Notes under the pieces: model-generated | What the model saw: the letters and a program-made list of their open reading frames with translations, nothing else | What the model was told of the DNA's origin: nothing | The model's database searches: none | Translations under genes and position numbers: made by a program | Shown here: positions 31,399 through 33,621 of the stretch, in pieces | Layout: the number at the start of each line of letters is the position of its first letter | Position numbering within the stretch: the first letter of the stretch is position 1 | DNA from: Pseudomonas cannabina | GTDB lineage: Bacteria > Pseudomonadota > Gammaproteobacteria > Pseudomonadales > Pseudomonadaceae | Length of the DNA: 64,000 bases | Assembly (NCBI RefSeq): GCF_900100365.1 | Contig: NZ_FNKU01000001.1 | Location: 4,415,501 to 4,479,500, forward strand | Direction of reading: 5' to 3'

Positions 31399-31614
31399 AT
31401 GACTATCAAAGCCATCAATGTTCGCAACCAGTTCAAAGGCACCATCAAGGAAATCGTCCACGGCGACGTATTGTCGGAAATCGACGTACAAACCGCCTCG
31501 GGCGTCGTGACCTCGGTCATCACCACCCGCTCGGTAAAAGAGCTGGAACTGGTCGTAGGCAGCGAAGTGATTGCCTTCGTGAAATCGACCGAAGTCTCCA
31601 TCGCCAAGCTGTAA
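31399..31614 (+). CDS. ssuF: Molbindin-like TOBE-domain protein SsuF
   Basis: 71 residues from ATG 31399, with AAAGGAAG upstream. One Mop/TOBE domain: INVRNQFKGTIKEIVHGDVLSEIDVQT, GVVTSVITTRSVKELELVVGSEVIAFVKSTEVSIAKL. In P. putida SsuF is needed for sulfonate use although its role is unclear; molbindins bind oxyanions such as molybdate. It closes the ssu operon just before a strong terminator. Confidence 0.93.
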   Translation: MTIKAINVRNQFKGTIKEIVHGDVLSEIDVQTASGVVTSVITTRSVKELELVVGSEVIAFVKSTEVSIAKL

Positions 31615-31630
31615 ACGATGAGTAAAAAAC

Positions 31631-31662
31631 ACCCCGGACGGTCCCGACCCTCCGGGGTTTTT
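31631..31662 (+). terminator. Terminator of the ssu operon
   Basis: ACCCCGGA (31631-31638) pairs with TCCGGGGT (31651-31658), followed by a T run; 17 bp beyond the ssuF stop. Confidence 0.9.
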
Positions 31663-31747
31663 GCTGTTTACCTAGTAGTTTTGCGAGGTAGGCGGTGTAA
31701 CGGTTTTGCTGGATGCTGAAGGCTGATTCCCTCTGAAGCATCTGGCC

Positions 31748-32674
31748 ATGACTTCTTCAAATCAAACAGTGTTATGCCGCTACAGTTATGACCCGCTGGA
31801 CCGTCTGGCTTCCAGCATGCCGAATGGCCAGGCGGGTATTCAGCGCTTCTATCAGAAGAACCGTTTGGCGACCGAGATACAGGGCGCGCTACGGCGTACG
31901 GTCTTTCAGCATGAAGACCTGTTATTGGCCCAGCAACGGCGTGTTGACGGTGCGCTGGAAACCACACTGTTGGCGACCGATCAGCAGCGTTCTGTCTTGC
32001 AGCTTGTGGACAAGGCTGGCACTGAGCCTATTGCTTACAGTCCCTACGGTCACCATCCGACTGAAAGCGGCTTGACCAGTTTGCTGGGGTTCAATGGCGA
32101 GCGACGCGATCCGGTGACCGGGCATTATCTGTTGGGGAATGGGTATCGGGCTTATAACCCGGTGCTGATGCGGTTCAATAGCCCGGACAGTTTGAGCCCG
32201 TTTGATGAGGGCGGGTTGAATGCGTATGGATATGTGGGTGGGGATCCGGTTGGGTTTGTGGATGAGACGGGGCATATGCCGTTTAAAAAATCCTGGAATA
32301 ACCTACCAAGGCGCGCGATGCGCAATGCTACGGTGGCTCGTGAAGAAAGCATTAGGCTTTACAGAGCTTGGGACCGTCCGATCAGGCGCAACGTCAAGGC
32401 GCTCAATCGAAATACGCCAAGCCCATTAGTAAATGAGCTGGCAGCGATAACAGCACATACCTCAGCAGGCCCTGACTCTCCAATTGCTTCAACCTCAAAT
32501 TACAGCGCGGGCGCAAGCTCTCCAAGGGGAGCGTCATTGTCCGAACAGGAATTGAAGAATACTCGGGCTAGGGAGACGCTGATTTATTCTAAAACCCAGC
32601 TGTTGCCCCCAGATAAATCAAGGCCTCCAGAGCGTTGCAGGGACGAAAAATCGAATAAATCAGCGCCTCCCTAG
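31748..32674 (+). CDS. Orphan RHS-core protein, C-terminus replaced by MITE sequence
   Basis: 308 residues as it stands. The N-terminus CRYSYDPLDRLASSMPNGQAG and RFYQKNRLATEIQGALRRTVFQHEDLLLAQQ are typical of short, free-standing RHS proteins of pseudomonads. The RHS-associated core follows (DPVTGHYLLGNGYRAYNPVLMRFNSPDSLSPF, GLNAYGYVGGDPVGFVDETGH, ending near residue 177), then a variable tail. The last 34 residues (from about 275) are encoded by the inserted element at 32572-32670, whose right target copy CTAG supplies the stop codon. The original reading frame continues downstream to 32936. Core-plus-variable-tail proteins are usually toxins or effectors; the start has no good ribosome site. 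Confidence 0.8.
   Translation: MTSSNQTVLCRYSYDPLDRLASSMPNGQAGIQRFYQKNRLATEIQGALRRTVFQHEDLLLAQQRRVDGALETTLLATDQQRSVLQLVDKAGTEPIAYSPYGHHPTESGLTSLLGFNGERRDPVTGHYLLGNGYRAYNPVLMRFNSPDSLSPFDEGGLNAYGYVGGDPVGFVDETGHMPFKKSWNNLPRRAMRNATVAREESIRLYRAWDRPIRRNVKALNRNTPSPLVNELAAITAHTSAGPDSPIASTSNYSAGASSPRGASLSEQELKNTRARETLIYSKTQLLPPDKSRPPERCRDEKSNKSAPP
32568..32674. mobile_element. 99-bp MITE with 18-bp terminal inverted repeats and CTAG target duplication
   Basis: The element spans 32572-32670. Left end GGAGACGCTGATTTATTC (32572-32589) and right end GAATAAATCAGCGCCTCC (32653-32670) are inverted repeats matching at 17 of 18 positions. Both ends are bordered by CTAG (32568-32571 and 32671-32674), a 4-bp target duplication of the type made by the IS5 group (YTAR targets). 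The internal 63 bp cannot encode a transposase, so it depends on a full-length relative in trans. Removing 103 bp (element plus one CTAG) rejoins the flanking RHS frame exactly. Confidence 0.85.
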
Positions 32675-32677
32675 GCT

Positions 32678-32936
32678 AAGCTATAGGTTGGCCGATGGTA
32701 TGTCTGACAGTGAGCATACTGCAAAAAATACTTTAACAATTCGTCAGAACAGGGTGGCGGATGCTAAAAAGATGAAAGAATATTACCGCGGTTCTGATGT
32801 TGATTATTTTAAGTTCTTCAAAGACGTTTTAAAGCGCGAGAAGCTTGAGTTAAAAGATTACAGCAAAGCTTTTTATATCAAGCATCCCCATTTCATACGA
32901 AACCCTGATCCACCTACTTTGGGGTCAGCTACATAA
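32678..32936 (+). pseudogene. Severed 3' end of the RHS gene (C-terminal toxin-like tip)
   Basis: After the MITE the frame LSYRLADGMSDSEHTAKN continues to a stop at 32936. It is in phase with the RHS gene only if the 103-bp insertion is removed, giving a 361-residue ancestral protein. The tip (QNRVADAKKMKEYYRGSDVD, FKFFKDVLKREKLELKDYSKAF) is lysine-rich and notably AT-rich compared with its surroundings, as usual for exchangeable RHS C-terminal domains. It could still be translated from ATG 32700, but that start has no clear ribosome site. Toxin class is not recognised, and no immunity gene is evident before the convergent TetR gene. Confidence 0.75.
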
Positions 32937-32946
32937 GTACGATAGA

Positions 32947-33621
32947 TCACGCTTTGGCTATGATCAGTCTCTTCCCCAAAAACACCGGCAAATACAACCC
33001 CAAATAAGCATCAAACACCCGCATGCCTTCCTCGGCCATGCGCGGTGTAATTTCATCATGCAACTGAATCGACCGCGCATACACCCGATCCCCCAGTTCC
33101 ATTGCCAGCGCAAACACGTCCACGTCATCCGGTAGCGCAGGCAACTGGAAGTGGCGATCAAACACCTCGAGCATCAACTGCCCCAGTTCGATGTCGTGCT
33201 GGCGGTCGGCCTGGTTGATTTCGGTCAGGCCGTGCTGGGCGAGGATCAGTTGGCGGGCGGCGGCGTCGGCGTTGTAAATGGCGAGCATGCGCAGTTCGAC
33301 GATGCGTGACAGGTCGCGCCAGGTGGTGAGCTGTTCATGATCGATGGGCGCTTGCAGCGATGCGCGGAAAGCGGCGTGGATGTCGGCGGTCAGTGCTTCA
33401 AGCAGCGCCGGAACGCTGGCGAAGAAATGGTACACCGACGAAGGTGGAATACCGGCGCGCTCGGCAACACTGTAGATCGACAGGCTGGCCACCCCTTGCT
33501 CGGCAAGCAACGTGCGCGCGGCTTCGAGAATCGAATCGATTCTGGCCTGGCTGCGTGCTTGCGGTTTGCGGGGAGTGGCGGCGCGTGTCATGGGCGTGGC
33601 TCTTGATTGGGCTGGCGGCAT
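32947..33621 (-). CDS. TetR-family transcriptional regulator
   Basis: 224 residues from 33621; a start at ATG 33591 (MTRAATPRKPQAR) giving 214 is equally possible. N-terminal helix-turn-helix: RIDSILEAARTLLAEQGVASLSIYSVAERAGIPPSSVYHFFAS, the standard TetR DNA-binding head. The C-terminal helical domain (about 80-224) would hold the ligand pocket. It lies 300 bp downstream of the minus-strand glutamine-synthetase-like gene of the polyamine cluster and could regulate it, but this is only suggested by position. Confidence 0.88.
   Translation of the reverse strand: MPPAQSRATPMTRAATPRKPQARSQARIDSILEAARTLLAEQGVASLSIYSVAERAGIPPSSVYHFFASVPALLEALTADIHAAFRASLQAPIDHEQLTTWRDLSRIVELRMLAIYNADAAARQLILAQHGLTEINQADRQHDIELGQLMLEVFDRHFQLPALPDDVDVFALAMELGDRVYARSIQLHDEITPRMAEEGMRVFDAYLGLYLPVFLGKRLIIAKA

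What the first reader, a model, noticed from the sequence alone, without database searches (positions are those of the whole stretch)
31748..32936. A 99-bp MITE cleanly interrupts an orphan RHS toxin-type gene
The sequence shows an element with 18-bp inverted ends (17 of 18 matching) flanked by CTAG duplications at 32568-32571 and 32671-32674. The RHS frame (31748) and the downstream frame (through 32688) differ by one base in phase. Deleting exactly the element plus one target copy (103 bp) puts them in one frame of 362 codons including the stop. The present protein therefore ends in element-encoded residues, with the stop inside the right CTAG. Its AT-rich C-terminal tip, expected to be the toxic domain, is cut off. 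Inactivation of an RHS toxin tip by a transposition event with an exactly reversible footprint is an unusual and testable case; precise excision would restore the toxin.
Basis: seen in the sequence. Interest (0 to 1): 0.75.

Follow-up and report, generated by a model that had tools for sequence, protein, structure and literature searches.

The report
Abundant mini-transposon cuts RHS gene tip
A 99-base repeated DNA element, present in at least 218 near-identical copies in this bacterial genome, sits inside the variable end of a short RHS-family gene and cuts its reading frame short; it was likely moved there by a resident insertion sequence with matching end bases, and in seven of the genome's ten RHS genes the reading frame runs into one of these two elements.

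Summary
Window 32572-32670 is a 99-bp element with 17/18-bp inverted ends and CTAG on both sides. It is a high-copy MITE: 218 copies with at most 3 mismatches in this genome. In an evenly spaced 1.264-Mb sample, 47 of 52 full copies have identical 4-bp flanks, mostly YTAR. The likely driver is a resident 1,209-bp IS5-family IS whose terminal 11 and 10 bases equal the MITE's left and right ends. A relative (G056) carries the same RHS gene at the same locus without the element, and no MITE was found in that genome. The gene has an RHS core and a variable end of unknown function. 'Toxin' is not supported: no domain found, no gene between its stop and the convergent TetR gene, dN/dS in the end about 0.9-1.1. 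Extra: in 7 of 10 RHS genes here the frame runs into this MITE or its IS, largely explained by the pair's strong bias for AT-rich DNA. MITE inactivation of P. syringae genes is in print; this is a new, very abundant member of that kind.

The parts
31748..32674 (+). Open frame of the interrupted short RHS gene as it stands now (308 aa), ending in element-derived residues and a stop in the right CTAG
32036..32275 (+). RHS repeat-associated core domain (TIGR03696, 77.7 bits, cut-off 32.5)
32276..32567 (+). Variable end of the RHS gene, piece before the element; 86% DNA identity to G056 (query 32270-32567)
32568..32571 (.). Left copy of the CTAG target duplication
32572..32670 (+). 99-bp MITE
32572..32589 (+). 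Left terminal inverted repeat, 18 nt; first 11 nt equal the left end of the 1,209-bp IS
32613..32628 (.). Internal degenerate copy of the right end (88% identical over 16 nt)
32653..32670 (-). Right terminal inverted repeat, 18 nt; last 10 nt equal the right end of the 1,209-bp IS
32671..32674 (.). Right copy of the CTAG target duplication; holds the stop codon of the present frame
32688..32936 (+). Open frame of the variable end beyond the element (82 aa), in another phase; 74.4% aa identity to the end of the G056 gene
32947..33621 (-). Convergent TetR-like regulator gene (name recalled from its sequence, no family search made); this DNA has relatives in 387 of 398 genus genomes

Best explanation
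A 99-bp IS5-type MITE flanked by CTAG duplications interrupts the variable end of a short RHS-family gene; it was likely mobilised in trans by the resident 1,209-bp IS5-family insertion sequence, and the gene is predicted to have lost the function of its variable domain. Shown: the element, its copy number and 4-bp duplications, the terminal bases shared with the IS, the homologous gene in G056 without the element, and the present frame ending in element-derived residues. Inferred: that this IS's transposase moved the MITE, that insertion was recent (many identical copies), and that the truncated product is non-functional. The pair sits mainly in AT-rich DNA, which includes RHS variable ends, so this is one of seven RHS reading frames in the genome that run into one of the two elements.
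For: 218 copies with <=3 mismatches, 0 in the reversed control. In the 1.264-Mb sample, 44 of 52 full copies round to 100% identity and 47 of 52 have identical 4-bp flanks: CTAA/TTAG 22, CTAG 13, TTAA 8, other 4. The IS ends GGAGACGCTGA / GGAGGCGCTG match MITE left/right including the A/G asymmetry, and the IS has the same kind of flanks. Its transposase hits NF033581 'IS5 family transposase' (335.6 bits, cut-off 140) and PF01609. Of 105 18-nt ends in the sample, 104 lie in full MITE copies and one in a copy cut off by the end of its stretch. Each RHS piece hits only G000 and G056 of 298 genus genomes; in G056 the matches lie 5 nt apart in one 359-aa frame. G056 has no MITE hit.
Against: The IS matches only the terminal 10-11 bp, not all 18, and the MITE interior shows no significant match to it (best E 0.07). 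The uninterrupted state rests on one homologue. dN/dS of the variable end is already about 0.9-1.1 against 0.22 in the core, so the end may have been weakly constrained before insertion, or diversifying. The 308-aa frame's product could still do something. Five of 52 copies in the sample do not have identical flanks.
Confidence: 0.87

Rival explanations
1. The 99 bp is ordinary coding sequence of this RHS gene that happens to be repetitive, and the frame change is a separate mutation.
For: The element is open in the frame in which it is read here (34 codons).
Against: 218 near-identical copies elsewhere with 4-bp duplications and a homologous gene without it.
Confidence: 0.02
2. The MITE is mobilised by another resident IS5-family transposase, such as the 340-aa class, rather than by the 1,209-bp IS.
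For: Several PF05598 transposase classes are present; the 340-aa class also hits NF033581, and the left flanks of its elements in L032 and L031 read CTAG and CTAA.
Against: Those elements begin GGAAACTCTGAAAAAG (left end only), a poorer match than GGAGACGCTGA/GGAGGCGCTG; that end is closer to the MITEPsy1 ends printed in PMC3189936 (passages seen).
Confidence: 0.1
3. The insertion is a functional switch: element-derived tails or reversible excision give alternative alleles of the RHS protein.
For: The element reads through with 34 (same orientation) or 27 (opposite) codons in one frame; 18 of 31 upstream open frames of >=80 codons in the sample enter in that frame. In NZ_LT963411.1 an annotated CesT chaperone gene ends inside a copy of the MITE.
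Against: The target's own TAR closes one frame, so two remain, and 18 against 11 (2 in the third frame) is no clear bias. I saw no excised site and did not look for one within the lineage; G056 shows no MITE at all, so its site is more likely ancestral.
Confidence: 0.06

Closest known systems
MITEPsy1 of P. syringae pv. phaseolicola (PMC3189936; abstract and found passages seen)
   Same: About 100 bp, 18-nt inverted ends, 4-nt duplication at CTAG or YTAA, listed there as 'IS5?', shifts the reading frame, interrupts genes (avrPphE/hopX1)
   Different: Different terminal sequence (GGAAGGTCTGAAAAAGCC printed there); linked there to ISPsy2; six copies in 1448A against at least 218 here
MITEPsy3 of P. 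syringae pv. actinidiae (PMC6053426; found passages seen)
   Same: High-copy (78) MITE of 102 bp that inactivates genes such as hopAV1
   Different: Attributed there, as probable, to ISPsy25 (IS630 family); its sequence is not in the passages I saw, so identity could not be tested; fewer copies
Short RHS genes of Pseudomonas beside the TetR gene
   Same: RHS core followed by a species-specific end, next to the same TetR gene
   Different: No MITE end was seen in the relatives' stretches of that locus

Membership tests
MITE of the IS5 group | Short, no transposase gene, terminal inverted repeats | tested here: met
   99 bp, 17/18 inverted ends
MITE of the IS5 group | 4-bp target duplication, YTAR-type target | tested here: met
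   47 of 52 identical flanks; 43 of those 47 are YTAR types
MITE of the IS5 group | Ends shared with an autonomous IS in the genome | tested here: met
   11/11 and 10/10 terminal bases shared with the 1,209-bp IS; the inner 7-8 bases of the ends are not
MITE of the IS5 group | Mobilised in trans by that IS's transposase | not testable with these tools
   needs an assay
MITEPsy1 | Terminal repeats GGAAGGTCTGAAAAAGCC / GTATCCTCTGAAAAAGCC | tested here: not met
   Ends differ (against the table)
MITEPsy3 | Same 102-bp sequence | tested here: inconclusive
   Sequence not in the text seen
RHS polymorphic toxin | RHS core domain | tested here: met
   TIGR03696 77.7 bits
RHS polymorphic toxin | Recognisable toxin domain after the core | tested here: not met
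   No Pfam or NCBIfam toxin hit for either piece, none in Pfam for the whole G056 gene; other libraries were not searched
RHS polymorphic toxin | Immunity gene directly downstream | tested here: not met
   RHS frame ends 32936, convergent TetR ends 32947; the same layout in G056
RHS polymorphic toxin | Variable ends on a conserved core at one locus | tested here: met
   Core 65.7-88% identical but different ends at this locus in G094, G155, G335, G022

The most novel reading that the evidence does not exclude
A paired burst of one MITE and its driver IS has disarmed most of a bacterium's RHS arsenal: 7 of 10 RHS genes are cut, six after the core and one inside it, and loss of the variable ends was favoured rather than only tolerated.
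Probability: 0.2. Interest if true: 0.65.

Novelty: new member of a known kind. Interest (0 to 1): 0.42.

Why it matters
It adds a very abundant bacterial MITE (at least 218 near-identical copies in 6.39 Mb) with a clear candidate driver IS in the same genome, which makes trans-mobilisation testable. It also shows that RHS gene ends in this genome are a common landing place for such elements, so short or orphan-looking RHS genes should be checked for element-derived tails before they are called toxins.

Tried and rejected
Specific targeting of RHS ends: it first looked strong (7 insertions in the first 450 element-free bases after 9 cores, against 1.3 expected per YTAR site, P 0.0004; the split core was left out). 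It faded when matched for local AT content: expected 2.6 (P 0.017) at AT >= 0.46 and 4.6 (P 0.18) at AT >= 0.50; without the window's own gene, 6 against 2.5 (P 0.045) or 4.5 (P 0.29). The test was made after seeing the pattern. I leave specific targeting as unproven.

Gene avoidance: both flanks open on one strand at 32, 17 and 14 of 52 copies for 40, 60 and 80 codons; unoccupied target sites give 0.60-0.63, 0.39-0.44 and 0.28-0.33, random positions 0.89, 0.77 and 0.63. So little or no avoidance beyond target choice.

Target is only TA (IS630 type): rejected, since a CAAG copy and the identical 4-bp flanks fit a 4-bp duplication.

Named genome collection: the 82-aa downstream piece gave 45 pattern matches, none confirmed, and an exact 36-base MITE pattern found 0; the tool warns that records near the window's genome may be left out. 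Papers. (four end strings) and one search found no paper. From the others I saw listings, and passages of four papers, and no description of this element in what I saw; supplements were not available. One search found no length for IS52 in its listing, and my recollection that IS52 is about 1.2 kb stays an untested lead. (RHS in P. syringae) was seen as a listing only.

Full report
Observation. The element at 32572-32670 has ends GGAGACGCTGATTTATTC and (reverse complement) GGAGGCGCTGATTTATTC, 17 of 18 identical, with CTAG on both sides. The frame opened at 31748 runs through it and stops in the right CTAG at 32674; another open frame, 32688-32936, lies beyond it in another phase and matches the end of the G056 gene.

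The element family. In the window's genome (6,388,314 bases, 9 contigs) 218 places match all 99 bases with at most 3 mismatches, and the reversed control gives 0; the 22-base end pattern with up to 2 mismatches gives 253 + 254. In 60 evenly spaced 20-kb stretches of contig 1 plus the window (1.264 Mb) I found 53 matches: 52 full and one cut by the end of a stretch. Of the 52, 44 round to 100% identity and 47 have identical 4-bp flanks. The five others have two different YTAR-like flanks (one side ATAA in one copy), as recombination between copies would give (inference). Related copies occur in 38 of 72,556 plasmid records, all Pseudomonas, four of them at >=99%. Among 298 genus genomes only the own genome and three distant matches (79-84%) ring; that search scored at most three candidates per genome. 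Of seven close relatives searched again, one (G326) has three copies at 90-96% and the other six none.

The likely driver. The genome has 141 PF05598 matches. By my count of that table, 94 share the score pattern of one class, mostly with a 338-aa frame. In locus L054 this IS is 1,209 bp, lies between two MITEs and shares CTAG with both. Its ends begin GGAGACGCTGA and GGAGGCGCTG, the same as the MITE's left and right ends including the A/G difference; the rest of the MITE does not match it significantly. Of the 11 other loci printed with both ends, 8 have identical 4-bp flanks (CTAG, CTAA, TTAG or TTAA) and 3 have two different ones of these. The transposase is an IS5-family DDE protein. Identical copies lie on Pseudomonas plasmids, among them pPMA4326A. 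In the sample the only 18-nt MITE end outside a full copy belongs to the copy cut by the end of a stretch, so no longer element with the full ends was seen there. That the IS moves the MITE is inference.

The interrupted gene. The frame carries an RHS core. Of 298 genus genomes, only G056 besides the own genome holds either variable-end piece. There the two matches are 5 nt apart inside one 359-aa frame, next to the same TetR gene and with the same transporter genes on the other side, one more short RHS gene standing in between. No MITE is found in that genome. So the uninterrupted state there looks ancestral, and the window lineage gained the element (inference from one relative). Six further close relatives have the TetR neighbour at 89-95% identity. 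In their fetched stretches (1.5 kb either side) none matches either piece of this end; G094 has a short RHS gene with another end, G212 a 37-residue match to the core (51%), and the other four no core match. More distant G155, G335 and G022 have short RHS genes with other ends there, G147's place in the table (L147, genome G066) has none. Pieces compared apart, dN/dS is 0.22 in the core (0.060/0.273), 0.87 in the first piece of the end and 1.11 in the second: fast or weakly constrained evolution. No toxin domain was found in Pfam or NCBIfam and there is no room for a downstream immunity gene. 'Toxin' therefore remains a guess.

Beyond the finding. TIGR03696 finds 11 core matches in the genome. 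Two are halves of one core split by the 1,209-bp IS, so I count 10 genes. In 7 of 10 the reading frame runs into the MITE (window gene, C1:225614, C1:5170867) or the IS (C1:4798567, C1:4985862, C1:4104633, and the split core) and stops in it, at its right flank (window gene), or 10-18 bases past its border. Only for the window gene do I have an uninterrupted relative. The other three are C1:4992066 (172 codons after the core, a MITE about 150 bp beyond its stop), C1:2431897 (184 codons, neither element in the 1.5 kb read) and C1:2450665 (57 codons, a MITE about 165 bp beyond its stop). In the sample, insertions per YTAR site rise from 0.003 where local AT is under 42% to 0.10 where it is at least 50%. 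With AT matched, the RHS excess is weak (expected 2.6-4.6, seen 7). The sober reading is that AT-rich DNA holds most of these elements and RHS ends are part of it.

Comparison with what is in print. MITEPsy1 (PMC3189936; abstract and passages) is the closest in kind: 100 nt, 18-nt ends, CTAG/YTAA duplications, frame-shifting insertion in effector gene avrPphE/hopX1, linked to ISPsy2. Its ends differ from this element's. MITEPsy3 (PMC6053426; passages) is a 78-copy, 102-bp MITE that inactivates hopAV1 and restriction genes, attributed to ISPsy25. The mechanism here is thus known; the element, its copy number and its IS partner are new as far as searches show.

Verdict. Real and well explained; a new member of a known kind. 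The RHS-wide pattern is the most interesting part and needs strain comparisons before selection is claimed.

Noticed in passing
G000 RHS loci L168, L171-L173, L175-L178: In 7 of 10 RHS genes of the genome the reading frame runs into this MITE or the 1,209-bp IS, six after the core and one inside it.
   Followed up: partly
1.264-Mb sample: Insertions of MITE plus IS per YTAR site rise about 30-fold from AT-poor to AT-rich surroundings.
   Followed up: partly
L054:647-2061 and the sample: MITE and IS stand in chains that share one 4-bp junction; 5 of 52 MITE copies adjoin a full IS and 2 another MITE this way.
   Followed up: partly
L065:11232-13491 (G056): Two short RHS genes stand in tandem where the window has one; window 31501-31800 (upstream stretch and first bases of the gene) aligns to the start region of the first, the rest resembles the second.
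   Followed up: partly
L167 (NZ_LT963411.1:19669-20049): The 3' end of an annotated CesT-family type III chaperone gene lies inside a copy of the MITE.
   Followed up: no
1.264-Mb sample: Only 1 of 52 MITE copies sits at the stop codon of a frame of at least 80 codons, against 0.21 of unoccupied YTAR sites; unexplained.
   Followed up: no
32613-32628: The MITE holds an internal degenerate copy of its own right end, which would mark off a 57-bp sub-element; none was seen alone in the sample.
   Followed up: partly
G000: A third transposase class with PF05598 (494-aa frame) has 35 copies by my count of the table.
   Followed up: no
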